Assembly (NCBI RefSeq): GCF_002266855.1
Contig: NZ_NGJN01000004.1
Span: 1 to 64,000 of the forward strand
Reading direction: 5' to 3'
Source of the DNA: Winogradskyella aurantia
GTDB lineage: Bacteria > Bacteroidota > Bacteroidia > Flavobacteriales > Flavobacteriaceae
Length of the DNA: 64,000 nt
The position numbers were made by a program, and so were the translations under genes. Positions 1 to 12,593 of this stretch are shown one piece after another. The notes below the pieces were generated by a model. That model saw nothing but the letters and a program-made list of their open reading frames with translations, did not search any database and had not been told where the DNA came from. Positions within the stretch are counted from its first letter, which is position 1. The number at the start of each line of letters is the position of its first letter.

Positions 1-34
1 ATGCGCTGTTAGTGTAATTTGGTTTAACCCTTGT

Positions 35-116
35 GATGATAACACATTTACTTTAAGATGCTTTGTCTGCGAAGCAGCGCAGATTAAAGTTCGCCTTTGG
101 CGAATGTGTTATCATC
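35..116. repeat. palindromic attC-like element at left edge
   Basis: A perfect 14-bp inverted repeat (GATGATAACACATT at 35-48, its complement at 103-116) encloses nested smaller stems (ACTTTAA/TTAAAGT and TCTGCG/CGCAGA). The AAC and GTT triplets sit where the other array elements have them. Unlike the others, the outer arms match each other, and the junction with the next element reads ATC instead of AAC, so this may be a damaged or hybrid site. A GTTAGTG at 8-14 looks like the start of another cassette body. Confidence 0.5.
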
Positions 117-238
117 GGTCTTGTGTATGGTTAGTTGCGTGTTTAAGCAACTAATTTAGTAAACAAAAACGAACGCGAGAAAATTCCGAAGGAATTTTCC
201 AAATAAGCAACGACCAAAGCAATTAATTATACACGTTG
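116..238 (-). other. attC-like recombination element 1
   Basis: A 123-nt imperfect palindrome between the cassette with the membrane protein and the left-edge palindrome. The arms GTGTATGGTTAGTTGC and GCAATTAATTATACAC pair over 16 positions on the + strand with three G.T wobbles. The apex is a perfect hairpin (AAAATTCC gaa GGAATTTT). Length and layout match the six other gene-following elements in this array. Confidence 0.8.
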
Positions 239-254
239 TTGGCAACTGGCTTTA

Positions 255-758
255 TTATTCTATAATTCCGCTAAATGTTTTCGATTCGCTATAAATTTTA
301 ATTCCGAAAAGATTCCATTTCAAAATTCCATCAGCAATATATTCCGCTTTTTCATTCGGTTTGTAATTGTTCGTTTGAATCGACTTAAATTCCCAAACGT
401 AACCACTAACAAATCCTGTCAAAAAACTATTGCTTTCAATTGGGATGAATTCGTTTTTTTCAACTGAATATTTTACGTGCATATTTATGTTGAAAGTCAA
501 ATTATCTTCGAGTGTTACTTTTTTAATTTTTGAATTATTCTTTTTGTTATAATCGTTATTTATCGTTATTCGATTCGTGCTTTTTTCCGAGTTTGAAGCC
601 GAAATTATTTGAACAATTCCGATTACCATTATAAAAATTGAAACAACTTTAAATTGAGGTTTGAAAATTCGTTTTCCTTTTGCTATAAATCCGACAATCA
701 GATATAGAAAGTACAAAACAATTATTCCGTTTATTATTGACCAAATTAAATGTATCAT
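255..758 (-). CDS. cassette-borne integral membrane protein, unknown function
   Basis: I do not recognise this 167-residue protein. Two hydrophobic segments lie at about residues 4-27 and 38-55, separated by a short basic loop, followed by a hydrophilic lysine/asparagine-rich stretch and a C-terminal domain of about 90 residues that probably sits on the outer side of the membrane. It is the only gene in its cassette, whose perfect 9-bp terminal inverted repeats (238-246 and 780-788) lie just outside the coding sequence. The start codon is about 30 bases inside the cassette end, so there is little room for a promoter of its own. It is probably read from a neighbour or a promoter inside the attC-like element. 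No function can be assigned. Confidence 0.65.
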   Translation of the reverse strand: MIHLIWSIINGIIVLYFLYLIVGFIAKGKRIFKPQFKVVSIFIMVIGIVQIISASNSEKSTNRITINNDYNKKNNSKIKKVTLEDNLTFNINMHVKYSVEKNEFIPIESNSFLTGFVSGYVWEFKSIQTNNYKPNEKAEYIADGILKWNLFGIKIYSESKTFSGIIE

Positions 759-787
759 AGGTCTCTGTTTTTTCAGCTTGTTGCCAA

Positions 788-1059
788 CGCCCTGCTAAAC
801 GCAGTGACGTTCTGGGTTAAAAATTTATGGTGACTGAAAGTTACATATAAATTTTAAAGACAGGCAGAACGTTGCCAAATTGCTTTTAGGAATTGTTGGG
901 TCGGGTTTTTGGTGTTTTCAAAGTTGTGGCCTAAGGCTTTGAGTCCCAACCGATGTTGCAATTTGGTTTAGCAGGGCGTTGGGACGGATGTCCAAGGGGC
1001 GGGAATTGCGCAGCAATGTAGCGACTTGGTAGAAGCCGCAGGCTTTAAATCCGTCCCAA
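788..1059 (-). repeat. geneless 272-bp cassette, copy 1
   Basis: This unit has two palindromic parts. The first (788-978) has 12-bp arms GCCCTGCTAAAC/GTTTAGCAGGGC enclosing several internal hairpins (ACGTTCTG/CAGAACGT, CCAAATTGC/GCAATTTGG). The second (979-1059) is bounded by GTTGGGACGGAT and ATCCGTCCCAAC. Read on the minus strand this is an 81-bp body followed by a 191-bp attC-like site, with no credible open reading frame. Two more copies that look identical lie at 3547 and 4885, which suggests recent insertion of a short cassette. Confidence 0.8.
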
Positions 1060-1178
1060 CGGTCTCGGCTATGAGTAGTTGCGTGGGTTAGCACTTAACT
1101 TTGCAAGTACATACCTAGTTGGAAATTCCGCAGGAATTTCCAAAGTAGGCGAGAAAAAGCAATTACTTATAGCCATTG
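1060..1178 (-). other. attC-like recombination element 2
   Basis: A 119-nt imperfect palindrome. The arms GGCTATGAGTAGTTGC and GCAATTACTTATAGCC pair fully on the + strand, with G.T pairs at stem positions 7 and 12. The apex hairpin is GGAAATTCC gca GGAATTTCC. Several stem base pairs differ from element 1 yet remain paired. Confidence 0.8.
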
Positions 1179-1193
1179 TTGTAGCACGTTTTT

Positions 1194-1580
1194 TTAATTT
1201 ATTTTTTCATTTTCCAATTCCGCAAACTTTTGTTTGTCCGTTGGTTTAATATTAACTAATTCAAATCGGTTTTTGTCCAAAACATTGAAGTCGACAAGAC
1301 TTAAATAAAGGTCAACAACATTTCTGTCAATCATTATTTTTCCGCTACCAGCCCAATGTCTGTCTGTTCCGTTTTTCTTAATTCCAGAAATCCAATATTC
1401 GTCTCCGTTTTCTATGTCATAATAGTTTCCAGATATTCCACGAGCATTTGAATTTTTAAAAGCTTTTCCATTGAAATATACAGTTCTGCCAGATTTTGAA
1501 AATTCAGCCATTCCAATCCAAGCAGGACCATTGTCTCCAAATCCAGTTTTTAATTCAATACATTTCAGTTCAGGTTTCAT
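1194..1580 (-). CDS. conserved hypothetical protein (cassette gene)
   Basis: A 128-residue soluble protein without signal peptide or membrane segment. The central part carries a GNYYDIENGDEYWISG stretch and a following DRHWAGSGK stretch that I associate with a small conserved family of unknown function, often found as a stand-alone gene in mobile regions and sometimes mis-named as an isoprenoid-pathway enzyme. Nothing in the sequence supports an enzymatic call. It overlaps the upstream CPCC gene by 4 bp (ATGA), so the two are translationally coupled and form the only two-gene cassette of the hypothetical group. The pairing suggests a joint function, but no toxin or antitoxin motif is visible. 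Confidence 0.6.
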   Translation of the reverse strand: MKPELKCIELKTGFGDNGPAWIGMAEFSKSGRTVYFNGKAFKNSNARGISGNYYDIENGDEYWISGIKKNGTDRHWAGSGKIMIDRNVVDLYLSLVDFNVLDKNRFELVNIKPTDKQKFAELENEKIN

Positions 1581-1852
1581 AAATTATTCCATTCGGGATT
1601 TAGAGTATCACTATTATTTACTTTTCGTGTATTAGAAATCATCGATTCTTCACAAGCTCCAAACTTGATATAATTTTGCCGTGCTTGTATTAATGAAACT
1701 CTATTTGCGCCTCCTACAAAATTTTCATCTTCAAATCCAATAGGGTCATCTTCCCAAAAACAAATTGGACAAATGCAATAATTCAATCTGTCTTTAGGGT
1801 CAAATGTGTCGTATCCGCAACAAGGACAATATTCATTCAATTTATGTTTCAT
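1577..1852 (-). CDS. CPCC-family cysteine-rich protein (cassette gene)
   Basis: A 91-residue protein with an N-terminal zinc-ribbon-like pattern: CPCCGYDTF near residues 9-17, then CICPICFWEDD near residues 27-37. This matches the CPCC cysteine-rich family, in which paired cysteines probably bind zinc; the biological role is not known. The rest is a short alpha-helical tail. It is the first gene in the cassette body (1179-1876) and its stop overlaps the start of the following hypothetical gene by 4 bp. Small CPCC proteins are frequent cargo of mobile elements, which fits its place in the array. Confidence 0.7.
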   Translation of the reverse strand: MKHKLNEYCPCCGYDTFDPKDRLNYCICPICFWEDDPIGFEDENFVGGANRVSLIQARQNYIKFGACEESMISNTRKVNNSDTLNPEWNNL

Positions 1853-1876
1853 TGGATTTTCTCAAATGTGCTACAA

Positions 1877-1998
1877 CGGTTCGGTGTATGGTTAGTTGCG
1901 TGGTTAAGAACGTAATTTAGCAAATAAATCACAGATAGAATATTCCGCAGGAATGTTCGTAAGTCGGCAGTGAACCAAGCAATTAATTATACACGGTG
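1877..1998 (-). other. attC-like recombination element 3
   Basis: A 122-nt imperfect palindrome whose main arms are the same as in element 1 (GTGTATGGTTAGTTGC / GCAATTAATTATACAC). The apex hairpin differs: GAATATTCC gca GGAATGTTC. It separates the L-domain lipoprotein cassette from the CPCC cassette. Confidence 0.8.
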
Positions 1999-2008
1999 TT
2001 AGCAAAAG

Positions 2009-2914
2009 TTATTGATTACATTGCCCATTTATTAAATCATCTAAAGTTGGGTTATATTGGTTTTGAAAAACTTCATAAGCTCCGGGTATGCCACCGTTTA
2101 TTAGAGAATTATTTAATGCACAGTAGTCTGAAAGATTTTCATTGAGAATTATATTGATTTGAAATCCAACGCTATTCAGGTTTTCTAATCCATTTAAATC
2201 AGTCAAAGCTGTTCCCGCAATAATGAGATTTTCTCCAATATTGGTCAGATTGCTTAATTGACTAATGTCGTTCAAATTGTTAACGTTTGAAAGTTGTAAT
2301 CTTCCACCAATAGTTTGAAAATTATTTAATCCTTCGAGGTTTGTTAATTGCGGACATTCGATAATCTGGATTCCACCACTTAGATTCTCAATATTTGAAA
2401 AACAGTTTAAATTTTGTAGGCTAGGATTTTCAGCAACTGTAATGTTTTCAATAAAATCGGGTATGTTAGCAAGTCCATCAATATTTTCTAGTAATGTATT
2501 TCTAAATATTGAGATAAATGGTAAAGCAACTGTGATGTTACTTAAAGCGTTAACATTCAGTAGCTCATTGTTATCATAGATTTCGATACTAAATCCAACT
2601 GATTTCAATGAGTCAAATCCGTTCAACTGTGTTAAGGCATTACTAGTTTTTATAGTAAACGTTTGGTCAATATTTGTAATTGAGTTCAGTGGGCTTAGGT
2701 CAATTATATCATGAATTCCATCTTCTATATCTGATATAACCAAACTTCCAGAAATTGAATTGTAATTATTAGCACCAAAGGAATTCACTTCTTCTTGCGA
2801 TATGAGTAGAACATCACCATCAAAAGTTAAATTTGATGGCTCGTCATCATTATTTGAATCACATGAGAGTATAAGAATGAATAGGAATAATAATGATGTT
2901 CTATAGGTTTTCAT
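2009..2914 (-). CDS. lipoprotein with receptor L-domain / leucine-rich-like repeats (cassette gene)
   Basis: The protein has 301 residues with a lipoprotein signal peptide (hydrophobic core at about 8-16, lipobox LILSC with Cys18) followed by an acidic Asp/Asn/Glu segment of the kind that sends flavobacterial lipoproteins to the cell surface. The rest consists of irregular repeats with L-x-x-L-x-x-L and N-L-x-x-L patterns (for example INNLNDISQLSNLTNIG), like the receptor L-domain or SusD-neighbour leucine-rich proteins of Bacteroidota. Such folds bind ligands; here the ligand is unknown. It is the only gene in its cassette (terminal repeats at 1998-2007 and 2931-2940). A single surface lipoprotein as cargo suggests exchange of surface antigens, which is my inference. 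Confidence 0.7.
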   Translation of the reverse strand: MKTYRTSLLFLFILILSCDSNNDDEPSNLTFDGDVLLISQEEVNSFGANNYNSISGSLVISDIEDGIHDIIDLSPLNSITNIDQTFTIKTSNALTQLNGFDSLKSVGFSIEIYDNNELLNVNALSNITVALPFISIFRNTLLENIDGLANIPDFIENITVAENPSLQNLNCFSNIENLSGGIQIIECPQLTNLEGLNNFQTIGGRLQLSNVNNLNDISQLSNLTNIGENLIIAGTALTDLNGLENLNSVGFQINIILNENLSDYCALNNSLINGGIPGAYEVFQNQYNPTLDDLINGQCNQ

Positions 2915-2939
2915 TGAGCTTTTTTTTAATTTTTGCTAA

Positions 2940-3056
2940 CGGTTTTGTGTATGGCTCGTTGCGGAAAATCAGCTATGATTTTCCGCCGTAACCGAAAGAT
3001 AGCAAATTGCAATGAATTTCGATTAGGAATTCAGCCGCAATGAGCTATACACGTTG
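2940..3056 (-). other. attC-like recombination element 4
   Basis: A 117-nt imperfect palindrome. The arms GTGTATGGCTCGTTGCGG and CCGCAATGAGCTATACAC pair on the + strand, with wobbles at stem positions 7 and 12. A strong 11-bp hairpin (GCGGAAAATCA / TGATTTTCCGC) replaces the usual apex. Stem pairs at positions 8-11 differ from elements 1 and 3 but are compensated. Confidence 0.8.
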
Positions 3057-3070
3057 TTGTGTGTAGTACT

Positions 3071-3511
3071 TTATTTCAGAAATCTGATTCTTTCTCCAGT
3101 GTCAGGGTCTGACAAAAAATACCACAATTGATAATTATTTTTTAATTTATAAATTTCTAAATCCGTTGTAATATTTGATTTGTCGAAATTCAGCTTAATT
3201 TTTTTCGTGTTGTATTGTTCAATAATTTTCCACGTTCCAGTTGAGATTCCGTTGTTAATTTCTCGGTCAAATAGATTTTGTGAATTATTCATTTCGAATT
3301 TATTATTAGGCTTAAAGGTCAGCACAATACTGTCGTTCTTAATTTCAGAAAGATATTCGTATGAGAATTTGTCCATTTTCCAAGTTCCAATAATATCATT
3401 TGAATTTACTTCAACATTTTTTCTCTCAATATTCACATCAATTGGTCCCATAAACTGGCAAGATGTAAATCCTAGAATTAAAATCAATAAAATCCAATAA
3501 TGTCTTTTCAT
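3071..3511 (-). CDS. lipocalin-like lipoprotein (cassette gene)
   Basis: A protein of about 146 residues starting at MKRHYW. This start was chosen because it puts a lipoprotein signal (GFTSC lipobox) at the N-terminus; an in-frame start 33 bases upstream would add a hydrophilic extension encoded across the cassette boundary. The mature part contains an IIGTWKMD motif and a later TGTWKI motif, characteristic of small lipocalin-like domains of Bacteroidota in which G-x-W marks the first strand of a beta barrel. It probably sits in the outer membrane as a monomer; its ligand is unknown. It is the only gene in its cassette (terminal repeats 3056-3065 and 3538-3547). Confidence 0.7.
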   Translation of the reverse strand: MKRHYWILLILILGFTSCQFMGPIDVNIERKNVEVNSNDIIGTWKMDKFSYEYLSEIKNDSIVLTFKPNNKFEMNNSQNLFDREINNGISTGTWKIIEQYNTKKIKLNFDKSNITTDLEIYKLKNNYQLWYFLSDPDTGERIRFLK

Positions 3512-3546
3512 TTCAGTTTTTGAGTTTGATTGGGTATTACACACAA

Positions 3547-3818
3547 CGCCCTGCTAAACGCAGTGACGTTCTGGGTTAAAAATTTATGGTGACTGAAAGT
3601 TACATATAAATTTTAAAGACAGGCAGAACGTTGCCAAATTGCTTTTAGGAATTGTTGGGTCGGGTTTTTGGTGTTTTCAAAGTTGTGGCCTAAGGCTTTG
3701 AGTCCCAACCGATGTTGCAATTTGGTTTAGCAGGGCGTTGGGACGGATGTCCAAGGGGCGGGAATTGCGCAGCAATGTAGCGACTTGGTAGAAGCCGCAG
3801 GCTTTAAATCCGTCCCAA
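3547..3818 (-). repeat. geneless 272-bp cassette, copy 2
   Basis: I see no difference from the copy at 788-1059: a 191-bp palindromic site (3547-3737) and an 81-bp body (3738-3818). It lies between the lipocalin-like and DUF6602 cassettes. The flanking cassette sequences are unrelated, so the 272 bp is the unit that was inserted. Confidence 0.8.
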
Positions 3819-3938
3819 CGTGTTTGTATATGGTTTGTTGCGTGGTTTAAGCACTAAATTTAGCAAATAAAAACCGAATAGAAAATCCGCGAGGATTTTC
3901 GTAAGTAGGCTAGAACTAGCAATAAATTATATACGGTG
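3819..3938 (-). other. attC-like recombination element 5
   Basis: A 120-nt imperfect palindrome. The arms GTATATGGTTTGTTGC and GCAATAAATTATATAC pair over 16 positions on the + strand with G.T pairs at positions 7, 8 and 12. The apex hairpin is GAAAATCC gcga GGATTTTC. Confidence 0.8.
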
Positions 3939-3953
3939 TTAGCAGCAGTTATT

Positions 3954-4853
3954 TTATCCTATTATTTCTCCTTTATGTGTGAAAATACCATCAAAATATT
4001 TTAGTAAAACAGGTTTCAACACTAGGCAATTTTTTAAATGTGTATTTAAAGCAAAAATTAAAAATGCAAAGTTTGCGGCAGCTCTATTTTCTATAGTACT
4101 AAACTCCAAATAAACCCATTTATATTCTTTTTTGTTTTCAGTTTTAATAAATTGTGGGAATAATTCAATTGATCCCAAAGTAGATTTATTATTTTCAATA
4201 AAAACTTTAGCCTTAACAATCATTCCCTGATCTAATAAGCAGATGAAATTAGGTAAATACTTATCATCAGTTTTGATTAGTAAATCTTTAATGTTATTAA
4301 TTTTAAAATCATTTGAATCAACAAAAAGTATAAATTTAAAGAGAGGGTTTTTGTAAGGTCTTGTGTCCTGGACTGTAAAATTAATTCCATATCCAAAATT
4401 TAATCCAATATCTTGACTTAATTGATTGTGCGGTGTTTCATCTCTGTTTAACTCCTCATAAATTTTGGTAGTTGAATTAATAAACGATTCGACATATTTC
4501 TTATTTGCGTAATACGTTGACTTAATTTCGGCGAAAGAATAAATCGATTCAAAAGGAAAATATTCAGTTCCATTTTCGGATGTAAATAATACAGGTGAAC
4601 CAGTATTATCAGCTATTATTAAATCTAATTGGCTACTTGTTTTGAGTTTTTTGTCAACAATATGTCCTTGGCTAACGTAATACTTTAATGGTAATTTTCT
4701 TCTAATAACTCTTCTAACGGAATTTTCAACTTCATCTCCTGAAGCATCAATGTCTTTAGTTTTATGAAGAACTTTACTTTTTTGCCGAGAGCTAAAAATT
4801 TCTTCAACATCTTGTTGCAGAATTGACAATATCTCTAGTTTTGGTAGTTCCAT
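3954..4853 (-). CDS. DUF6602 nuclease-like protein (cassette gene)
   Basis: A soluble protein of 299 residues. An N-terminal helical part (residues 1-55, rich in Arg/Lys with VRRVIRRKLP) precedes a segment with SQLDLII (Asp77) followed about 30 residues later by FPFESIYSFAEIKST (Glu109, Lys111). This D...ExK spacing is that of PD-(D/E)xK nuclease-fold proteins and is typical of the DUF6602 family, whose members occur near defence and restriction genes. Activity has not been shown for the family as far as I know. The gene is alone in its cassette (terminal repeats 3938-3947 and 4876-4885). A role in defence against foreign DNA is plausible given the restriction-modification cassette in the same array, but is inferred. 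Confidence 0.65.
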   Translation of the reverse strand: MELPKLEILSILQQDVEEIFSSRQKSKVLHKTKDIDASGDEVENSVRRVIRRKLPLKYYVSQGHIVDKKLKTSSQLDLIIADNTGSPVLFTSENGTEYFPFESIYSFAEIKSTYYANKKYVESFINSTTKIYEELNRDETPHNQLSQDIGLNFGYGINFTVQDTRPYKNPLFKFILFVDSNDFKINNIKDLLIKTDDKYLPNFICLLDQGMIVKAKVFIENNKSTLGSIELFPQFIKTENKKEYKWVYLEFSTIENRAAANFAFLIFALNTHLKNCLVLKPVLLKYFDGIFTHKGEIIG

Positions 4854-4884
4854 TTTAGTATTACTTGTTTTTAATTGCTGCTAA

Positions 4885-5156
4885 CGCCCTGCTAAACGCA
4901 GTGACGTTCTGGGTTAAAAATTTATGGTGACTGAAAGTTACATATAAATTTTAAAGACAGGCAGAACGTTGCCAAATTGCTTTTAGGAATTGTTGGGTCG
5001 GGTTTTTGGTGTTTTCAAAGTTGTGGCCTAAGGCTTTGAGTCCCAACCGATGTTGCAATTTGGTTTAGCAGGGCGTTGGGACGGATGTCCAAGGGGCGGG
5101 AATTGCGCAGCAATGTAGCGACTTGGTAGAAGCCGCAGGCTTTAAATCCGTCCCAA
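4885..5156 (-). repeat. geneless 272-bp cassette, copy 3
   Basis: The third apparently identical copy: palindromic site 4885-5075, body 5076-5156. Spurious reading frames cross it on the minus strand, but they have no start context and recur in no conserved form elsewhere in the window. Confidence 0.8.
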
Positions 5157-5275
5157 CGGTAACGTATAAGAGCAGTAGCGGATTTCAAAGCATTTACCTT
5201 TCCGCCATCACAAAGGTTTGTTAGATGCACAGACCTTGAATTTACCACCTTACCCGCTATTGCTTTTATACAATG
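5157..5275 (-). other. attC-like recombination element 6 (second subtype)
   Basis: A 119-nt imperfect palindrome of a second subtype. The arms GTATAAGAGCAGTAGCGG and CCGCTATTGCTTTTATAC pair over 18 positions on the + strand, again with G.T pairs at positions 7 and 12. The inner hairpin is AAGGTTTGT / ACAGACCTT. The last residues and the stop codon of the HxlR regulator are encoded inside it. Confidence 0.8.
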
Positions 5276-5699
5276 TTGTAGCCAGTTTTTTTTTGTATTT
5301 TCTCTCTATTTCATTCGCAAAAGCCGTTTTATCATTCCTTAGTAATTCCATTGCTTCCGCATTCATAATGCTAGGATGTAGGTCTCTAAGGTTCTTGTCA
5401 CTCCATGATGCAAGCTCTACAAGAATAGGTGTTAAGGCCAAGCCTTTATCAGTCAAAAGATAGAGGTTGGTCTTTTTATTGTCAGGTCTTTTTGTTTTAA
5501 TAATGATTCCGACTTCTTCCAAAAGTTTGAGTTTGGCAGAAAGAATATTGGTTGCAATAGCTTCTTCGCTTTCTGTAAAGTCCTTAAAGGTCTCTTTACC
5601 TTCTATCAGCATTTGCTTTACAATAACCAGCATCCACTTGTCGCCTAATATGTCAAGGGCAGAGGTAAACGGGCAATCACATCTAAAATCTAGCGGCAT
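5250..5699 (-). CDS. HxlR-family transcriptional regulator (cassette gene)
   Basis: A 149-residue regulator with the HxlR winged helix: CPFTSALDILGDKWMLVIV near residues 9-27, a central L-x-x-L-x-x-x-G-I helix, and a DNA-facing wing near 85-100. Cys9 is at the position of the redox-sensing cysteine of quinone- and electrophile-responsive HxlR regulators such as YodB and QorR. It is divergent from a SnoaL-like lipoprotein and a flavodoxin-like oxidoreductase across a 117-bp spacer with repeated ATTACTT half-sites, so it very probably controls them and itself. The last six codons and the stop lie beyond the cassette body, inside the attC-like element; recombination would therefore change its C-terminus. 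Confidence 0.85.
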   Translation of the reverse strand: MPLDFRCDCPFTSALDILGDKWMLVIVKQMLIEGKETFKDFTESEEAIATNILSAKLKLLEEVGIIIKTKRPDNKKTNLYLLTDKGLALTPILVELASWSDKNLRDLHPSIMNAEAMELLRNDKTAFANEIERKYKKKLATTLYKSNSG

Positions 5700-5719
5700 C
5701 TGTTAAGTCAACATTAAAT

Positions 5720-5803
5720 ATTACTTGCAAAATAAAATTAATCTCTAGTATTACTTGCTTATTGAAAGTAATTATCTATTTTTGCTTGCAAAACAAAAGT
5801 AAT
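5720..5803. promoter_or_regulatory. probable HxlR operator region
   Basis: Between the divergent genes the half-site ATTACTT occurs at 5720-5726 and 5750-5756, and its complement AAGTAAT at 5766-5772 and 5797-5803. The result is an inner and an outer inverted pair about 30 bp apart. The inner pair overlaps the -33/-7 promoter spacer of the rightward genes. Binding by the adjacent regulator is inferred. Confidence 0.6.
5755..5784 (+). promoter_or_regulatory. Bacteroidota-type promoter for the redox genes
   Basis: TTG at 5755-5757 and TATTTTTG at 5777-5784 match the TTG / TAnnTTTG consensus with a 19-bp spacer. The start codon at 5817 follows about 30 bases later. The cassette thus carries its own promoter. 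Confidence 0.6.
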
Positions 5804-5816
5804 AAATCAAAATCAA

Positions 5817-6722: not shown

Positions 6723-7312
6723 TGATGAAGAAAGCACTAATAATAAACGCACATCAAGAATACCCCTTTGCTAAAGGCGAATTGAATCACGAAATCGCCA
6801 AAAGGATTGGTGAACACCTTAAAAATGTCGGTTATGAAATAAAAACAACCACTATGAAAGATGATTGGGATGCTGATGAGGAAGTTGATAAACATACGTG
6901 GGCAGATGTAGTCATCTTACAGTCTCCTACCAACTGGATGGGCTTGCCTTGGAGTTTCAAGAAGTATATGGACGAGGTTTATACGGCAGGAATGTTTGGT
7001 AAAATGAGCCAAAATGATGGCAGAACAGCAGAATCACCGAAGAAGAATTATGGCAGTGGTGGATTGATGCAGGACACGCAATACATGCTTTCACTGACAT
7101 TCAATGCACCAGAAGAATCATTTAATGATGAAAAAGAGTTTCTTTTTGCAGGCAAATCTGTGGATGACTTATACTTTCCTCAACACATGAATTTTAAGTT
7201 TTTCGGCATGAAGCCCATACCTACGTTTGCTTGCTTTGATGTCATGAAAAATCCGAATATTGAGAGCGACTTCAAGAGACTTCAAAAGCATCTTGAGGAA
7301 AATTTTGGATAA
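6722..7312 (+). CDS. NAD(P)H-dependent flavodoxin-fold oxidoreductase, MdaB-like (cassette gene)
   Basis: A 196-residue cytoplasmic enzyme of the flavodoxin-like NAD(P)H:quinone oxidoreductase family (modulator of drug activity B type). The N-terminal ALIINAHQEYPFAKGELN is the FMN phosphate-binding strand-loop, SPTNWMGLPWSFKKYMDEV near residues 63-81 is the conserved P-x-x-W-x-x-P-x-x-x-K motif contacting the isoalloxazine ring, and YGSGGLM near 107 continues the cofactor site. Such enzymes reduce quinones by two electrons. The start overlaps the preceding stop codon, so the pair is an operon, and a strong terminator follows at 7348. With the redox-cysteine HxlR regulator it makes a self-contained quinone or electrophile response cassette. 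Confidence 0.85.
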   Translation: MMKKALIINAHQEYPFAKGELNHEIAKRIGEHLKNVGYEIKTTTMKDDWDADEEVDKHTWADVVILQSPTNWMGLPWSFKKYMDEVYTAGMFGKMSQNDGRTAESPKKNYGSGGLMQDTQYMLSLTFNAPEESFNDEKEFLFAGKSVDDLYFPQHMNFKFFGMKPIPTFACFDVMKNPNIESDFKRLQKHLEENFG

Positions 7313-7347
7313 TCGGTTTTAGTATTTTCAAATACGAGTAAAGTTGA

Positions 7348-7380
7348 AATCACAAGAATTTCTGTTCTTGTGATTTTTTT
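7348..7380 (+). terminator. intrinsic terminator of redox cassette genes
   Basis: The stem AATCACAAGAA / TTCTTGTGATT has 11 perfect pairs, a 6-base loop and a run of seven T (7374-7380). It lies 35 bases after the oxidoreductase stop, still inside the cassette body. Confidence 0.85.
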
Positions 7381-7408
7381 GGTTTTACTTTTCTCAAATT
7401 GGCTACAA

Positions 7409-7527
7409 CGGTCTAGTGTATGAGTAGTAGCGGATTTTAAGTGCTAACTTTTCAGTTTTGAACTGACCTTTATTTTATGTTCTATCTCTCGTTTTATCAC
7501 TTAAACCGCTATTACTTATACACATTG
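7409..7527 (-). other. attC-like recombination element 7 (second subtype)
   Basis: A 119-nt imperfect palindrome. The arms GTGTATGAGTAGTAGCGG and CCGCTATTACTTATACAC form 18 pairs on the + strand with G.T at positions 7 and 12. The apex hairpin is TCAGTT ttg AACTGA. It follows the restriction-modification cassette on the minus strand. Confidence 0.8.
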
Positions 7528-7560
7528 TTACCTGCTGGCTTTATTCATTTTCAGTCCGTT

Positions 7561-7634
7561 AGCGTTGGCGTGAAAGCTCTTTGCAACCGCAGGGACGAGG
7601 ATTGCAATGTGCTTGAACATTGCGTTGGCTTTAG
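7561..7634 (-). repeat. structured repeat, left copy, at end of restriction-modification cassette
   Basis: GTGAAAGCTCTTT (7570-7582) and TGTGCTTGAAC (7608-7618) flank a stem TTGCAA / TTGCAA (7581-7586, 7602-7607) with a loop containing AGGGACGAG. A second copy with different but still complementary stem sequence lies at 11252-11335 in the same orientation. GCGTTGGC is repeated at 7562 and 7622. It overlaps the stop codon of the nuclease gene. Confidence 0.6.
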
Positions 7635-8788
7635 AATAAGAAATCCTTAGTCAAAATTTCCGTTATTCTCGCCCAATTAAATTCAATTCCTCTACCGACA
7701 GTAAAATATCTAGTACCTCTTGTTTTTAAAAGTCCAAGTTTATTCCAAAGTTTTAATTCATCTCTGATATAACTCTCTTTATTTCCTGTGGTGGTTCGAC
7801 CCTCTTTTCTTTGCCCAATTGAGTTGTTCTCATCTAAATAGGTCTCAAAATCTTTTCTGAATTGAGTACTGTTAGCCAAACTTGCTGAATTAGCTCTTGT
7901 TTTGTAATCTTCCAAATCCTGAATCAAAATCAAGTGTTTTCCTTCAATCAAAACAAGTTTTGTAAGGTAATCCATATAAAGACTGCTTTCAATCCCAAAA
8001 ATCTTTCCTATCGAAATTAATTTATAGCCTTCGGCTGTCAATCTACCTTCTGAAGGTTCAATTAAACCTAATTGAAAAAGTGGGATTTTATAATTTTGCT
8101 TTTCACTCCTGTAGTTGGTCTCATTATCAGTCTTAGTTCTTCCAGCACCTTCCCAAGTTCTTGTTTGTCCGTTTACCATTAAACGCCAAAATTCAGGCCA
8201 AGCATTGTTTGTATATATGTCTCCTGGTTCACTTGCATATTTGTCAAGAAGGTTTAGTAAAGTGAAAATCTCATAGTGGCTGATATCTCTCCACCAACAC
8301 CAGTAAGTTTCGTTTATGTGTTCAGTTACAATTTCTCCAGTTCTCTCGTGTTCGATTGGTTTAAATAACTGAATTGAATTGAGCGGGTCTGATTCAAGTG
8401 TTCTCTCATTATATCCTATAACTGAAATATAATGTCTTGAAAACACATCAAGCGAAAGAATATTTGTCAAATGTTGAGCAATATTATAACCCTCTACAAA
8501 TGTGGGTAGAATTATACCTGAATAATGGTGTTTTTCTAGATAAGATAATGTTTGACCAAGACCAGTTAAATATTCTCTTTTAGAATGGTTTGGTGGTTTA
8601 AATTCAAATGCGACACTTTGGTCTAAATCATAGTCAAAACAAACATAGTCAGGTCTTGGCCAACTAAAATCCCCTGCTTTATTCAGGTTGTCTGAAAAAA
8701 CTTGCCCCCAATTGTCTACACGATTAACAATTTTAGAAACAATTGCTCTTCCTGCTTTATCTGCTAATAAGTCGTGATTTGCTCCCAT
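7631..8788 (-). CDS. putative restriction endonuclease of a two-methyltransferase system (cassette gene)
   Basis: The last gene of the restriction-modification operon encodes 385 residues. Near the N-terminus RPDYVCFD (Asp47) is followed by VAFEFKPP (Glu62, Lys64), a compact PD-(D/E)xK catalytic site. Residues 95-385 show no motif I recognise; the GRTKTDNETNYRSEKQ and GRTTTGNKESYIRDEL stretches look like a repeated DNA-binding or dimer element. The start overlaps the upstream methyltransferase by 25 bp, so its synthesis is coupled to that of the methyltransferases. Position and nuclease motif make it the likely cutting subunit, probably of an asymmetric site because two m5C methyltransferases accompany it. 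The recognition sequence cannot be read from here. Confidence 0.75.
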   Translation of the reverse strand: MGANHDLLADKAGRAIVSKIVNRVDNWGQVFSDNLNKAGDFSWPRPDYVCFDYDLDQSVAFEFKPPNHSKREYLTGLGQTLSYLEKHHYSGIILPTFVEGYNIAQHLTNILSLDVFSRHYISVIGYNERTLESDPLNSIQLFKPIEHERTGEIVTEHINETYWCWWRDISHYEIFTLLNLLDKYASEPGDIYTNNAWPEFWRLMVNGQTRTWEGAGRTKTDNETNYRSEKQNYKIPLFQLGLIEPSEGRLTAEGYKLISIGKIFGIESSLYMDYLTKLVLIEGKHLILIQDLEDYKTRANSASLANSTQFRKDFETYLDENNSIGQRKEGRTTTGNKESYIRDELKLWNKLGLLKTRGTRYFTVGRGIEFNWARITEILTKDFLF

Positions 8789-9807
8789 TCTTCTACTAAA
8801 ATTTGTTTTAAATGTTCCGCAAATATTTTTGACAACTTTACTGGAACTGCGTTACCAACTTGTATGCATTGTTCTTGCCTTGTGCCTTCAAAAATCACAT
8901 CATCTGGAAAGGTCTGAATTCTTGCAGCTTCTCGAACGGTTAAACTTCTATTTTCTATTGGATGCAAGGGAAAAGCATTGTGTCCAGGAACCATAGTTGT
9001 TGCTGGTTTATCTCTGTGTAATCTTTTATAAACGTGACTAAAATTTTTCAATTTATTGTCCTTAAAATCACTTCTTGACCCCTTCAATAGATGTTCAGGA
9101 ATATTTGGATGTATTCCTCCACCTTCTAAAATATAGCTAATTCTTTCCTTAACAATAGGATTATGATTCATTGGAATATGGTTTGGTACTTGATTTTCTT
9201 TGCCAACCAAATCCATTATGTGGTCTCTCAAAGTCTCAGGATTTTGTTTTGAGAATTCTTTTGGGTAATCAATTTCTTGACCGTCTTTAGAGCCAATAAA
9301 AAACACTCTATATCTTTTTTGTGGAACACCATAGTCGGCAGCACAAATTATCTTGCATTGAGCATTTTCGTAACCAATTTCCTTAAATCTTTCGAGTAGA
9401 ATATCTCGGAAATATCCATTTTTTGATGAAACTAAACCACGAACATTTTCCATAATGAAAAAGTCTGGTTTGAGTGTTTTGACTGTTCTCAAAAATTCTA
9501 GTATGAGATTATTTCTTTCGTCATTTGGATTTCTGTTTCCAATTGTTGAAAATCCTTGACAAGGTGGTCCGCCAACAACAACATTGACCTTTTTTCCTTT
9601 GGCGGACTTTATAAACTCTTCATTGGAAATTTCTCTAATGTCTTTTGAGAGTAGTGGAACGTTTGGATAATTTGTTTTGTGAGTTTCAATAGCTGGTTTC
9701 CAATTTTCAACTGAAAATAATGGCTCAAAGCCAGCATCCATAAACCCTCTTAAAAATCCTCCAGCTCCTGAAAATAAATCGACAAAGGTTAATTGCTCAC
9801 TATTCAT
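8764..9807 (-). CDS. DNA (cytosine-5-)-methyltransferase, second of pair (cassette gene)
   Basis: A 347-residue type II m5C methyltransferase that transfers methyl from S-adenosylmethionine to cytosine C5. Motif I is DLFSGAGG (10-17), motif IV GGPPCQGFS with catalytic Cys83, motif VI MENVRG, motif VIII QKRYR, motif IX REAARIQTFPD, motif X QVGNAVP. The target-recognition region between motifs VIII and IX (about 190-285) is shorter and differs from that of the neighbouring methyltransferase, so the two probably modify different strands or sites. It overlaps the upstream methyltransferase by 8 bp and the downstream nuclease by 25 bp. All motifs are intact. Confidence 0.92.
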   Translation of the reverse strand: MNSEQLTFVDLFSGAGGFLRGFMDAGFEPLFSVENWKPAIETHKTNYPNVPLLSKDIREISNEEFIKSAKGKKVNVVVGGPPCQGFSTIGNRNPNDERNNLILEFLRTVKTLKPDFFIMENVRGLVSSKNGYFRDILLERFKEIGYENAQCKIICAADYGVPQKRYRVFFIGSKDGQEIDYPKEFSKQNPETLRDHIMDLVGKENQVPNHIPMNHNPIVKERISYILEGGGIHPNIPEHLLKGSRSDFKDNKLKNFSHVYKRLHRDKPATTMVPGHNAFPLHPIENRSLTVREAARIQTFPDDVIFEGTRQEQCIQVGNAVPVKLSKIFAEHLKQILVEEWEQITTY

Positions 9808-10837
9808 ATTTATCTAATATTTTTAAAACGTGATTAGCCCAATTTTCTGCTAAAACTGGTGGTACTGCATTACCCACTTGAATACATTGGGCTTGTCTAT
9901 TCCCTGTGAAAATATAATCGTCTGGGAATGTTTGAATTCTTGCGGCTTCTCTGACTGTTAAACTCCTGTTTTCCGTTGGATGAATTGGGAAAGCATTGTG
10001 TCCAGGAACCATTGTTAAAGATGGTTTCTCCCTATGTAATCTTTTAAAAGTATTTCCGAAATTCTTTCTGTATAGTTCTGGTGGTAATTTATCCTCAGGC
10101 ATTCTTTCGCCTTCAGGAATTAATTTATACCTAGCAATATTTATTTCACCGTGTTTGAGTGGTGCGTGGTTTGGTATTTTATTCTCTTTTCCCACTAAAT
10201 CATTAATTGCTTGACCAACGGTCTTGTGTTTATGACCATTAATTCCATTTTCAAAATGCGTTTGTTCAGGATATGGATTTTCCTCTAATAAGGTTCTATG
10301 ACCAAACACAAAAGTTCTATATCTTATTTGCGGAACACCATAATCTGCAGCATTTAAAATTTTATGCGAAATTTTATAGCCAGGAATGGAATTGAACTCT
10401 TCCATTACGTCTTCAAAAAAATTACCTTTTCTATAAGTTGTTAAGCCTCGCACATTTTCCATTATAAAGTACTTTGGTCTTAAAACACGAACGTGATTTA
10501 TAAAATGACCAATTAGATTATTACGGATATCGTATTTTTCCCTTTTATTGGAATTAGATGATGCTCTATTTCCAATTGTTGAGAAGCCTTGACAAGGTGG
10601 TCCTCCAATTAATACATCAACTTCTTTTATCCCTTTTTCATCCCAATATTTTTGTTCGTCAATTAGAGATAAATCAACCTTTTCAAAAGGTAGTTCTGGA
10701 TGATTTTCTTTGTGAAATGATTCACAGTCTTTGTTAAAATCGGCAGCCATTAGCAATTCAAATCTTCCTGTATTTAAAAATCCGCTATGGAATCCACCAA
10801 TTCCAGAAAACACATCTATTAGTGAATATTTTTTCAT
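9800..10837 (-). CDS. DNA (cytosine-5-)-methyltransferase, first of pair (cassette gene)
   Basis: A 345-residue m5C methyltransferase. The start MKKYSLIDVF was chosen because motif I (DVFSGIGG, 8-15) normally begins within the first ten residues, and because it gives a 4-bp overlap with the controller gene. A longer frame reaches 10924 but would run antiparallel in reading phase through the controller coding sequence. Motif IV is GGPPCQGFS with Cys82; motifs VI (MENVRG), VIII (QIRYR), IX (REAARIQTFPD) and X (QVGNAVPP) are all present. It is clearly a paralog of the downstream methyltransferase. Paired m5C methyltransferases usually protect the two strands of a non-palindromic recognition site. 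Confidence 0.92.
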   Translation of the reverse strand: MKKYSLIDVFSGIGGFHSGFLNTGRFELLMAADFNKDCESFHKENHPELPFEKVDLSLIDEQKYWDEKGIKEVDVLIGGPPCQGFSTIGNRASSNSNKREKYDIRNNLIGHFINHVRVLRPKYFIMENVRGLTTYRKGNFFEDVMEEFNSIPGYKISHKILNAADYGVPQIRYRTFVFGHRTLLEENPYPEQTHFENGINGHKHKTVGQAINDLVGKENKIPNHAPLKHGEINIARYKLIPEGERMPEDKLPPELYRKNFGNTFKRLHREKPSLTMVPGHNAFPIHPTENRSLTVREAARIQTFPDDYIFTGNRQAQCIQVGNAVPPVLAENWANHVLKILDKYE

Positions 10838-11160
10838 TCTAATTCTAATTTTCCTTGTTTGACGTTTTTGTTTCTTATATAGCTTGCTGTTTCTTCTGCT
10901 ACCGAAAAAATTGTTTCTGAACAATGATATTTTTGAGCCTCTCTTGCAAACTTATCTGCAAAGAACAAGTCAACTACTTTTTGTTTATCTGCTTCAAATA
11001 GTTTTGAGAGTAACTCAAGTTTATTTTTACTAAAAGTTTGAGTTCCATTTTCAATTCGACTTACCGCACTAGAATTCACTCCGATTTTAGCACCAAAATC
11101 TGTCTGAGTCCATTCTCTTTTTTCTCGTTCAACTTTTATATAATCACCAAAGCTTGCCAT
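10834..11160 (-). CDS. XRE-family HTH regulator, probable restriction-modification controller (cassette gene)
   Basis: A 108-residue protein. Residues 5-62 form a Cro/C1-type helix-turn-helix (TQTDFGAKIGVNSSAVSRIENG spans the two helices in part), followed by an alpha-helical C-terminal extension of about 40 residues. It is first in the restriction-modification operon and overlaps the first methyltransferase by 4 bp, the place of a controller (C) protein that delays the nuclease after transfer to a new host. A 13-bp palindrome lies between its promoter and start codon and is the probable autoregulatory operator. It is slightly longer than typical C proteins (about 80 residues). Confidence 0.82.
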   Translation of the reverse strand: MASFGDYIKVEREKREWTQTDFGAKIGVNSSAVSRIENGTQTFSKNKLELLSKLFEADKQKVVDLFFADKFAREAQKYHCSETIFSVAEETASYIRNKNVKQGKLELE

Positions 11161-11175
11161 TTTTCTGTATTTACG

Positions 11176-11188
11176 TCAAATGATTTGA
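11176..11188. promoter_or_regulatory. palindromic operator upstream of the controller gene
   Basis: TCAAATGATTTGA is a perfect palindrome with a central G, 16 bp upstream of the controller start and just downstream of the -7 element. Repression at this place would block transcription of the whole operon. Function is inferred. Confidence 0.45.
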
Positions 11189-11199
11189 TATAATTTTAG

Positions 11200-11207
11200 C
11201 AAATATA
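11200..11207 (-). promoter_or_regulatory. -7 element of the restriction-modification promoter
   Basis: On the minus strand TATATTTG matches TAnnTTTG. It lies 40 bases before the controller start. A -33 TTG at the usual distance is not clear. Confidence 0.5.
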
Positions 11208-11251
11208 AAAATGTTTTGCGAATTTACTATCAAGTTTAATAAATTTTTTCG

Positions 11252-11335
11252 GGTGGTGGTGGGGAAGTGAAAGCTCTTTTTATTTTGTGAGGAATGAGCA
11301 AAATGAAATGTGCTTGAACGTGCGGTGGCTTTTTT
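11252..11335 (-). repeat. structured repeat, right copy, at start of restriction-modification cassette
   Basis: GTGAAAGCTCTTT (11268-11280) and TGTGCTTGAAC (11309-11319) are shared exactly with the copy at 7561. The stem here is TTTTATTTTG (11278-11287) / CAAAATGAAA (11299-11308), different in sequence from the other copy but also paired, with loop TGAGGAATGAG. Confidence 0.6.
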
Positions 11336-11342
11336 TCAGCTT

Positions 11343-11378
11343 GCAGGTAACTTGTTATATCAGAACAAATATATGTGT
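11343..11378 (-). other. attI-like junction between recombinase and first cassette
   Basis: On the minus strand the sequence reads ATAACAAG then TTACCTGC, with the expected crossover at 11350/11351. The first cassette's end tag GCAGGTAAC (11343-11351) complements its other end GTTACCTGC at 7527-7535. The bases from 11351 to the recombinase stop belong to the platform. The AACAAG|TT form resembles the core of known integron attI sites (AACAAAG|TT). Confidence 0.65.
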
Positions 11379-12593
11379 TTATCGTTTAATATTTCGGGAT
11401 AACAGAAGTTTTGACCTGTCTTTTTGGGTTTCTGTTATCTCCTTTACAGCTAGGTCTAATGGACTTTTAATTTGCATCAAGTCCCTTTGGGCAACATGGG
11501 TGTAGATCATGGTTGTTTCGGGCTTGGCATGGCCTAAAAGCATTTGTATATGTCGTAAATCTACCCCGTTTTCCATTAAATGAGTAGCATAACTATGTCT
11601 TAACACATGCGGTGTCACTGTCTTGGTTATACCTGCTTCTTTACATGCAGTTTTTAAAAACCCACGAACACTCTCAGCTGTATACATACCACCACCACGT
11701 CCTTCAACAAAATAATATTTAGGATTGTAAGTGTTTACATAGTTCAATAATAATGGCTTTAATACTTCACTCATTATTACAGTTCTGTCTTTTCTCCCTT
11801 TAGCCTGCCTCACATGTAACTGATTTCTATCTAAATCCAGATCCTTCAATTTTAAATTTAAGAGTTCGCCAATCCTGAGTCCACTAGAATAAATTATTCC
11901 GATAATTGCTCTGTGCTTAAGGTTTTTAGTCACCTGCATGAGGTCTATAATCTCTTCCTTAGACAACACCACCGGTAATCTTTTGCTTTTTTTTGGACGT
12001 GTTAATCCTTCGGTGTCAAAATCTTCGAGATTGCAATAACTTCCAAGGTACTTTAGTGCACTCACACTCTGCCTATGGCTGCTGATACTGTAATTCTCCT
12101 CAGCCATAACCTTTTCAAAAAACAAATCCATATCGCTTTTTTGCCATGTATCTAAAGGCTTTGGCTTTACAAAATCCAAAAAGCGTAAAATAAAAAAACC
12201 ATACGTGCGTACCGTACTTGGGCTTAAGCGTTTGCCTTTTAAAAACCCGGTATAGGCTTTAAGCAACGCCTTGTATTCTGCGGGTAGGTCAGTGTGCATG
12301 GCGGCCATAGTCATTTCGGGCTTTGTCTTTTTAGTAGCTTTGTAAACCTCTTGCGGCACATTGGAAAAGGCACTGTAGTCCACATAAAAATTATGGTCTC
12401 TCAAATAGGTAAACAGTGTATGGAGTCGTGTTTTGGAATAGGCCGTGTAAAAGGTTCGGTGCGTGGCCGACCATTTGCTACCATCAAAGTCGTTAACAAT
12501 AGATTTTGTACGGTCCGAATATCTAAACGCTATAGCAATTTGCTCAGCACCCCTATGATGCAGTGGTGATAATACAATGGTTTCCTGTACCAT
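11379..12593 (-). CDS. tyrosine recombinase, integron-integrase-like
   Basis: A recombinase of 404 residues from the start MVQETIV; an in-frame start 54 bases upstream would add a hydrophobic stretch with no conserved look. Residues 1-95 form an extra N-terminal domain with a KWSATHRTFY segment, 105-190 a core-binding SAM-like domain (LSPSTVRTYGFFILRF), 205-380 the catalytic domain with Arg240, Lys265 or 268, His329, Arg332, His355 and nucleophile Tyr364. The stretch from GITKTVTPHVLRHS through TTMIYTHV to SPLD resembles IntI closely, including the SPLD end. The extra helix and loop that IntI proteins have between the second and third conserved patches is absent. It lies in the same orientation as the cassettes, directly upstream of them, as in the reverse integron of Treponema. 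Confidence 0.9.
   Translation of the reverse strand: MVQETIVLSPLHHRGAEQIAIAFRYSDRTKSIVNDFDGSKWSATHRTFYTAYSKTRLHTLFTYLRDHNFYVDYSAFSNVPQEVYKATKKTKPEMTMAAMHTDLPAEYKALLKAYTGFLKGKRLSPSTVRTYGFFILRFLDFVKPKPLDTWQKSDMDLFFEKVMAEENYSISSHRQSVSALKYLGSYCNLEDFDTEGLTRPKKSKRLPVVLSKEEIIDLMQVTKNLKHRAIIGIIYSSGLRIGELLNLKLKDLDLDRNQLHVRQAKGRKDRTVIMSEVLKPLLLNYVNTYNPKYYFVEGRGGGMYTAESVRGFLKTACKEAGITKTVTPHVLRHSYATHLMENGVDLRHIQMLLGHAKPETTMIYTHVAQRDLMQIKSPLDLAVKEITETQKDRSKLLLSRNIKR

What the first reader, a model, noticed from the sequence alone, without database searches (positions are those of the whole stretch)
1..12593. Integron-like cassette system of a non-canonical type in a Bacteroidota genome
Ten cassettes follow a tyrosine recombinase directly. 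Seven gene cassettes carry private terminal tags that are exact inverted complements, flanked by GTT and AAC, and are separated by folded palindromic elements: the architecture expected if circular cassettes insert through attC-like sites. The recombinase differs from standard integron integrases, so searches tuned to IntI would probably not call this an integron. Cargo includes restriction-modification, a redox module, a nuclease-like protein and surface lipoproteins. Basis: boundaries and repeats are seen; integron geometry is known; that this recombinase moves these cassettes is inferred.
Basis: partly seen in the sequence, partly recalled or inferred. Interest (0 to 1): 0.95.

Follow-up and report, generated by a model that had tools for sequence, protein, structure and literature searches.

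The report
Integron lacking the classic integrase domain
Many Flavobacteriaceae genomes carry strings of gene cassettes built like integrons, but next to a recombinase that lacks a domain regarded as essential in integrons, and that likely captures and shuffles these genes by cutting one folded DNA strand.

Summary
Ten cassette bodies (7 gene-bearing, 3 identical 83-bp ORF-less) end in private tags that match themselves over 9-12 nt, 10 of 10. They are separated by co-oriented hairpin elements and stop at a conserved attI-like motif beside a tyrosine recombinase. In 30 of 40 loci examined (window included) the recombinase is followed by such an array. A held-out profile put 201 of 201 sites downstream of the recombinase, in one orientation. 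Identical cassettes sit between different neighbours with edges at the predicted ends. In predicted folds the strand that integrons recombine is the stabler one at 142 of 146 shorter sites. So it is most likely a working integron-like system. The private tags are not exotic: classic attC sites have them. What is unusual is the recombinase, which lacks the integrase-specific segment (63-65 versus 107 residues) and has an extra, XPB-resembling N-terminal domain; the array lies 3' of its gene, and most sites have G.T wobbles about where classic sites have extrahelical bases. Recombination is untested. Ten full-text searches listed no description.

The parts
11379..12590 (-). Tyrosine recombinase (403 aa, integron-integrase-like, lacks the IntI-specific segment; N-terminal domain residues 1-75 with XPB/HARP-like predicted fold)
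   Evidence: Pfam PF00589, PF13495; NF040815 222.6 bits vs cut-off 220, TIGR02249 200.7 vs 265 in two stretches; residues taken (from recall) as the catalytic set invariant in an alignment of 74 rows, query included; models
11349..11359 (-). attI-like junction TATAACNNGTT (TATAACAAGTT here); first cassette starts at its GTT
   Evidence: strict motif within 270 nt of the recombinase alignment end in 31 of 44 loci vs 1 of 880 shuffles, 0 of 44 in the 300 nt upstream; recombinase-block homology ends exactly at 11349 in 9 of 13 listed genus matches
7527..11351 (-). Cassette 1 body: HTH regulator, two cytosine-5 methyltransferases, restriction-enzyme-like protein
   Evidence: own tag 9 nt
7410..7526 (-). 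attC-like element of cassette 1
   Evidence: R1 99 bits
5275..7409 (-). Cassette 2 body: HxlR regulator (-), SnoaL-like and flavodoxin-like genes (+)
   Evidence: own tag 10 nt
5158..5274 (-). attC-like element
   Evidence: R1 94 bits
4886..5157 (-). ORF-less mini-cassette: body 5075-5157 plus 189-nt element 4886-5074
   Evidence: 272/272 identical to 3548-3819, 789-1060 and G000:C11:522756-523027
3938..4885 (-). Gene cassette body: NucC-like nuclease (DUF6602)
   Evidence: own tag 10 nt
3820..3937 (-). attC-like element
   Evidence: R1 107 bits
3548..3819 (-). ORF-less mini-cassette, second copy
3056..3547 (-). Gene cassette body: small protein with a lipoprotein-like start (read by eye), no Pfam match
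   Evidence: own tag 10 nt
2941..3055 (-). attC-like element
   Evidence: R1 105.9 bits
1998..2940 (-). Gene cassette body: receptor-L-domain (leucine-rich-like) protein
   Evidence: own tag 10 nt
1878..1997 (-). attC-like element
   Evidence: R1 110.8 bits
1178..1877 (-). Gene cassette body: unknown protein plus CPCC protein
   Evidence: own tag 10 nt; 99% identical over window 1167-1877 in another species, ending at 1877
1061..1177 (-). attC-like element
   Evidence: R1 116.4 bits
789..1060 (-). ORF-less mini-cassette, third copy
238..788 (-). Gene cassette body: unknown protein, no Pfam match
   Evidence: own tag 9 nt
116..237 (-). attC-like element
   Evidence: R1 114.2 bits
36..115 (-). 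Probable further mini-cassette body with GAT/ATC core
   Evidence: inverted termini read by eye; partial context only (contig end)

Best explanation
This is an integron-like gene-cassette array whose recombinase, of a lineage without the integron-integrase-specific segment, likely inserts and excises circular cassettes by recombining one folded strand of each cassette's hairpin site with a conserved site beside its own gene. Shown by sequence: each cassette is a body plus a downstream hairpin site; head and tail of a body are exact inverted complements, so a circularised cassette would restore one continuous stem of about 10 bp (R box) next to a 3x6-nt unpaired spacer and a roughly 16-bp second stem (L box); the sites found next to the recombinase point the same way; the array ends at TATAACNNGTT a few tens of nt after the recombinase. 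Inferred: as in integrons, the strand complementary to cassette sense (window + strand) is extruded and is the substrate, and crossover falls at G/TT. Its stem closes with G.T wobbles, commonest at stem positions 7 and 12, which become A.C mismatches on the other strand, so strand choice would be written in wobbles rather than extrahelical bases. Also inferred: the N-terminal XPB/HARP-like domain, or the core domains alone in short relatives, takes over hairpin recognition from the missing segment.
For: Own tags 10/10 in the window, 18/18 in two Winogradskyella relatives, 102/137 at anchors set by a held-out profile vs 2.9% for shuffled partners. De novo chains of at least 5 cassettes in 23 of 40 loci, 0 of 400 dinucleotide shuffles. 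Held-out profile: 201 sites in 40 test loci, all downstream (554 kb) and in one orientation, none in 118 kb upstream. attI-like motif 31/44. Bottom strand more stable at 142/146 short and 28/30 long sites; mean in its favour in 25/25 loci; A.C on top 292 vs G.T on top 12 of 2192 stem cells. Four complete identical mini-cassettes and an identical partial one in different contexts with exact edges. Cross-species cassette matches often stop at body ends. Longest ORF in cassette sense in 161 of 174 bodies that have one of 60 aa or more; 35 of 209 have none. 17-147 sites per genome in 9 of 9 genomes examined.
Against: No recombination was observed: no strain pairs, no circle reads. 10 of 40 loci show no clear array by either test (L090, L091, L095, L096, L099, L116, L120-L123). 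The strict attI-like motif is missing in 13 of 44 loci. Of 26 genomes picked for lacking a strong recombinase match, sites occur in 10 of 13 with a match at E up to 1e-44 and in 2 of 13 without (30 sites in G019, 1 in G728); three with such a match have no sites. Outside Flavobacteriaceae the link is not shown: none of 17 loci from other families (13 with at least 2 kb downstream) reaches 5 chained cassettes. The recombinase tree does not make this lineage a clade of its own. 35 of 137 held-out pairs had tag matches below 8 nt.
Confidence: 0.88

Rival explanations
1. The array is moved by classic double-strand Xer-like recombination at short cores; the hairpins are only binding-site palindromes or are read as RNA (terminators or attenuators).
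For: The recombinase is closest by sequence among solved structures to XerA (5hxy 157.3 bits) and lacks the segment tied to single-strand substrates. Stable hairpins between genes would also suit terminators.
Against: Pairing is better on the strand opposite to the cassette-sense transcript (142/146), the reverse of what a transcript hairpin needs. Long private tags restored only in the circular form fit a hairpin arm, not a double-strand core. Rfam finds nothing at its gathering scores.
Confidence: 0.08
2. The elements are dispersed repeats or MITE-like insertions that happen to lie downstream of a Xer-family gene; tags are target duplications or chance.
For: Elements are numerous and dispersed through the genome (41 matches in the own genome) and two genomes have them without a good recombinase match.
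Against: Tags are inverted and belong to the body, not to the element; 201/201 one-sided, co-oriented sites; motif next to the recombinase; chains of 5 or more not seen in shuffles.
Confidence: 0.02
3. A decayed classic integron: once IntI-driven, now a cluster of sites next to an unrelated Xer-like gene.
For: Canonical IntI exists elsewhere in the phylum (84 of 296 genomes over cut-off) and shares tag geometry.
Against: No genome of the own family in these two searches has a match over the IntI cut-off; putative catalytic residues are invariant in 74 aligned rows; identical cassette copies suggest recent activity.
Confidence: 0.02

Closest known systems
Classic integrons (IntI, attI, attC; class 1, Vibrio cholerae)
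   Same: Recombinase at one end, conserved attI-like site, co-oriented circularisable cassettes, long R'/R'' complementarity, conserved G after AAC on the bottom strand, unpaired spacer, variable terminal part, predicted bottom-strand polarity
   Different: Recombinase lacks the additional segment (about 42 residues shorter there) and usually has a 75-residue N-terminal domain; array lies 3' of the gene; wobbles, commonest at stem positions 7 and 12, where classic sites have extrahelical bases
Reverse (unusual) integrons of Treponema denticola, Blastopirellula, Chlorobium
   Same: Integrase reads toward the array (passages of PMC3607928 and PMC6557892)
   Different: I recall that those carry canonical IntI proteins; not tested here
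XerA / NF040815 tyrosine recombinases
   Same: Best sequence and fold match among solved structures (5hxy); NF040815 cut-off just met
   Different: Extra N-terminal domain; cassette array attached; the genome has two separate Xer-type recombinases
XPB N-terminal (DNA-damage-recognition) and SMARCAL1 HARP domains

Membership tests
Integron (classic, IntI-based) | Integrase with the IntI-specific additional domain | tested here: not met
   TIGR02249 200.7 vs 265 bits, split; 0 of 21 genus genomes over cut-off; segment 63-65 residues in 16 of 29 rows that could be measured, 107 in 25 of 30 canonical rows
Integron (classic, IntI-based) | attI site next to the integrase gene | tested here: met
   Conserved motif in 31 of 44 loci and homology break at one base; sequence only, function untested
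Integron (classic, IntI-based) | Array of cassettes each with an attC having complementary R boxes and a folded bottom strand | tested here: met
   folding predicted, not measured
Integron (classic, IntI-based) | Extrahelical bases in the attC bottom-strand stem | tested here: inconclusive
   A.C on top (G.T on bottom) at position 7 in 62% and position 12 in 66% of 137 elements; a sub-type read has a 1-nt bulge
Integron (classic, IntI-based) | Integrase gene divergent from the array | tested here: not met
   Array is on the 3' side in the window and in all loci with sites; short-form G001 and G029 have it on the 5' side
Integron (classic, IntI-based) | Cassettes gained and lost at attI/attC junctions | tested here: inconclusive
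   Exact identical copies in new contexts and cross-species breakpoints, but no strain comparison
Integron (classic, IntI-based) | Cassette promoter Pc | not tested
   -
XerA_Arch (NF040815) | Score above curated cut-off | tested here: met
   222.6 vs 220 bits
XerA_Arch (NF040815) | Chromosome dimer resolution | not testable with these tools
   Separate XerD-like genes present in the same genome
XPB/HARP-like N-terminal domain | Fold similarity | tested here: inconclusive

The most novel reading that the evidence does not exclude
A whole integron lineage of Flavobacteriaceae that recombines folded single strands without the I2 domain: it reads hairpins through a distortion-sensing XPB/HARP-like N-terminal domain and encodes strand choice in G.T wobbles placed where classic attC sites have extrahelical bases. 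It is either an independent invention of integron recombination or a living relative of the pre-I2 ancestor, and it builds super-integron-sized cassette collections.
Probability: 0.4. Interest if true: 0.95.

Novelty: new variant of a known kind. Interest (0 to 1): 0.86.

Why it matters
The extra integrase domain is described as necessary for integron recombination (passages of PMC9668308, and PMC8138268; the latter adds that it is not fully conserved in its integron-like subgroup), and how single-strand recombination could have evolved before it existed is an open question (passages of PMC4792948). A widespread system with integron anatomy but without that domain makes the question directly testable. 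It would also mean that integrons in Flavobacteriaceae (recombinase in 172 of 397 genomes) have probably been largely invisible to IntI-based surveys: IntegronFinder 2 reports one complete integron within Bacteroidetes proper, in Salinibacter, besides those in Chlorobi and Ignavibacteriae (passages of PMC9024848). I did not run IntegronFinder.

Tried and rejected
RNA element or terminator reading: rejected as main reading because pairing favours the non-transcribed strand. MITE or dispersed-repeat reading: rejected. Private tags as the novel feature: rejected; canonical IntI loci in the phylum show tags of 9-15 nt on the 5' side of intI (chains of 12, 6, 5 and 4 in L204, L212, L211, L213; the other 8 of 12 loci gave chains of at most 2 at 9 nt on either side). 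Folding asymmetry as a general attC trait: in those four canonical loci the bottom strand was the stabler one at only 16 of 23 sites. Sister group of IntI: the tree puts IntI (30 rows) and Xer (17 rows) on supported branches with this lineage between them, unresolved. Pfam on the N-terminal part alone: no match. Rfam: no match in 13 kb at gathering scores. A loose attI pattern hit 40 of 44 loci but partly at spurious places, and is not used. Literature: ten searches listed no paper that I recognised as describing integrons of this type in Flavobacteriaceae; only open-licence PMC papers are held, no preprints, and I judged most from the listing. Passages only, from PMC8618304, PMC9024848, PMC2426708, PMC8138268, PMC9668308, PMC2727003, PMC3108266, PMC4792948, PMC3607928, PMC6557892. 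An earlier count said 7 and 13 sites in L012 and L017; the counts on the array strand are 6 and 12.
Full report
OBSERVATION. The window is the first 64 kb of a contig of a 19-contig genome; its closest named relatives are Winogradskyella. Searching all GTT...AAC pairs with matching inverted termini recovers ten tiled bodies from 238 to 11351 (the same scan also lists chance pairs of 8-12 nt that do not tile). Own head and tail match over 9-12 nt in 10 of 10; between different bodies the longest match is 8 nt. Three of the ten are one identical ORF-less body. Seven shorter elements align as one family: with the stem that I named, 99.2% of 133 cells pair, 8 of 19 pairs change on both sides, and 0 of 500 shuffles reach any of the five measures. 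The recombinase reads toward the array.

RELATIVES, NAMED. Six Winogradskyella loci carry the recombinase at 62-73% identity. Directly after it 6 of 6 have a similar stretch ending in TATAACNNGTT, after which different cassettes follow. Two loci have long downstream sequence: 6 and 12 sites on the array strand with model R1, and 18 of 18 cassettes carry own tags of 9-10 nt.

RELATIVES, SYSTEMATIC. In the family, 172 of 397 genomes have the recombinase at E at most 1e-60 (163 of 330 good ones; 125 of 237 genera). I fetched 40 loci: the 25 places in single-contig genomes among the rows that one search lists, and 15 chosen by hand for identity spread and downstream room. With the window, L012, L016 and L017 that is 44, of which 40 have at least 2 kb downstream. 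Without any model, chains of at least 5 cassettes occur in 23 of 40, and in 0 of 400 dinucleotide shuffles (longest 4). A profile trained on elements of the window, L012 and L017 only, applied to the other loci, gives 201 sites, all downstream (554 kb) and in one orientation, none in 118 kb upstream; 22 of 37 loci have at least 3. The union of both tests is 30 of 40, and 20 of 25 in the rule-chosen set. The ten without are L090, L091, L095, L096, L099, L116, L120, L121, L122, L123. At anchors set by that profile (pairs without full profile ends or without GTT/AAC there were dropped first), 102 of 137 adjacent pairs have an own-tag match of at least 8, against 2.9% with shuffled partners.

attI-LIKE SITE. 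TATAACNNGTT lies within 270 nt of the recombinase alignment end in 31 of 44 loci (median 31 nt), in 1 of 880 shuffles and 0 of 44 upstream stretches. Of 13 listed genus matches to the recombinase block, 9 end exactly at window 11349, the last base of the first GTT, and 4 run 3-15 nt further.

MOBILITY. The 272-bp mini-cassette occurs as four complete identical copies (three here, one at C11:522756); a fifth is cut by the start of contig C11 (117/117), and poorer copies lie at a C1 contig end (95% over 97 nt) and twice on C15 (80%, 72%). The five left and four right neighbours seen differ, and identity starts and stops at the predicted ends. Of 16 listed cross-species matches over 300 nt to gene cassettes, at the integrase-proximal end 8 stop within 7 nt of the body end, 1 runs 14 nt past it and 7 stop inside; at the other end one (G435) runs through the cassette's own site and 39 nt into the head of the next body. 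One match is 99% identical over 711 nt in another species. The five such cassettes whose surroundings I fetched lie beside other sites, without a recombinase within the 15-20 kb taken. Single genomes hold 17-147 sites (9 of 9 examined; at most 150 candidates scored each, so lower bounds).

STRAND POLARITY. On 137 distinct 114-122-nt elements the best stem register leaves 3 nt on one side and 6 nt on the other. Of 2192 stem cells 68.1% are Watson-Crick (46.8% with arms permuted), 13.3% are A.C on the cassette-sense strand, that is G.T on the other, and 0.5% the reverse. With DNA parameters, the strand that integrons recombine is more stable at 142 of 146 short and 28 of 30 long sites, and on average in 25 of 25 loci; 60 shuffled sites differ by -0.27 kcal/mol on average (sd 1.65), the real short ones by -3.55. 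The wobbles are commonest at stem positions 7 (62%) and 12 (66%). In several canonical attC sites of the same phylum printed the first extrahelical base follows about six or seven pairs. In those four canonical loci the bottom strand is the stabler one at 16 of 23 sites only. That wobbles stand in for extrahelical bases is my inference. The base before GTT is C in 173 of 178 elements, matching the conserved G after AAC reported for attC (passage of PMC2727003).

A SECOND FORM. Among the 26 genomes picked for lacking a strong match, several family members have short recombinases (278-306 aa) without the N-terminal domain, and without the IntI segment in the two where it could be measured (G029, G034). 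In G001 and G029 the array lies on the 5' side, as in classic integrons; in G034 it lies on the 3' side. So the N-terminal domain is not needed everywhere.

LIMITS. Outside the family the recombinase is found (63 of 295 class genomes, a count that includes the own family), but none of 17 loci from other families (13 with at least 2 kb downstream) reaches 5 chained cassettes. In the 26 picked genomes sites occur in 10 of 13 with a recombinase match at E up to 1e-44 and in 2 of 13 without. Canonical IntI occurs in 84 of 296 phylum genomes. Recombination itself was not observed.

KNOWN OR NEW. Anatomy and predicted working are those of an integron. Membership in the classic IntI-defined family fails on the integrase domain and on gene orientation; reverse integrons are known. 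I file it as a new variant. No description was found in the listings of ten searches of open PMC papers; NCBI product names such as site-specific tyrosine recombinase/integron integrase exist for relatives.

Noticed in passing
window 36-115: A further mini-cassette-like unit whose two ends carry GAT and ATC instead of GTT and AAC, as if the core had changed on both sides.
   Followed up: no
window 789-1060, 3548-3819, 4886-5157: One 272-bp ORF-less cassette is kept in three identical copies here and a fourth elsewhere in the genome; it may carry a promoter, as shown for ORF-less cassettes of Treponema (PMC6557892, passages), but this was not tested.
   Followed up: partly
window 3954-4853: A cassette encodes a nuclease-like protein (PADLOC PD_DExK 2.6e-21, NucC 2e-16) without an obvious partner in the cassette.
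   Followed up: no
window 7527-11351: A 3.8-kb cassette holds two cytosine-5 methyltransferases, a restriction-enzyme-like protein and an HTH regulator, large for a cassette (median body 667 nt).
   Followed up: partly
L286 (G001:C13) and L287 (G029:C9): Short recombinases without the N-terminal domain have arrays of the same site family on their 5' side; domain loss and gene orientation may go together, but G034 is a counter-example.
   Followed up: partly
G000 contigs C1, C3, C4, C11, C14: Contigs of the own genome begin in or near such arrays, so the assembly is probably broken by them; a 7.7-kb contig (C3) holds 7 sites of the own-genome list.
   Followed up: partly
L109 (G346): A recombinase copy with four in-frame stops still has seven held-out-profile sites downstream: probably a decaying array.
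   Followed up: no
plasmid collection: Relatives at about 34% identity over more than 90% of the protein occur on plasmids of Chryseobacterium, Pontibacter, Rufibacter and Persicobacter; mobile versions may exist.
   Followed up: no
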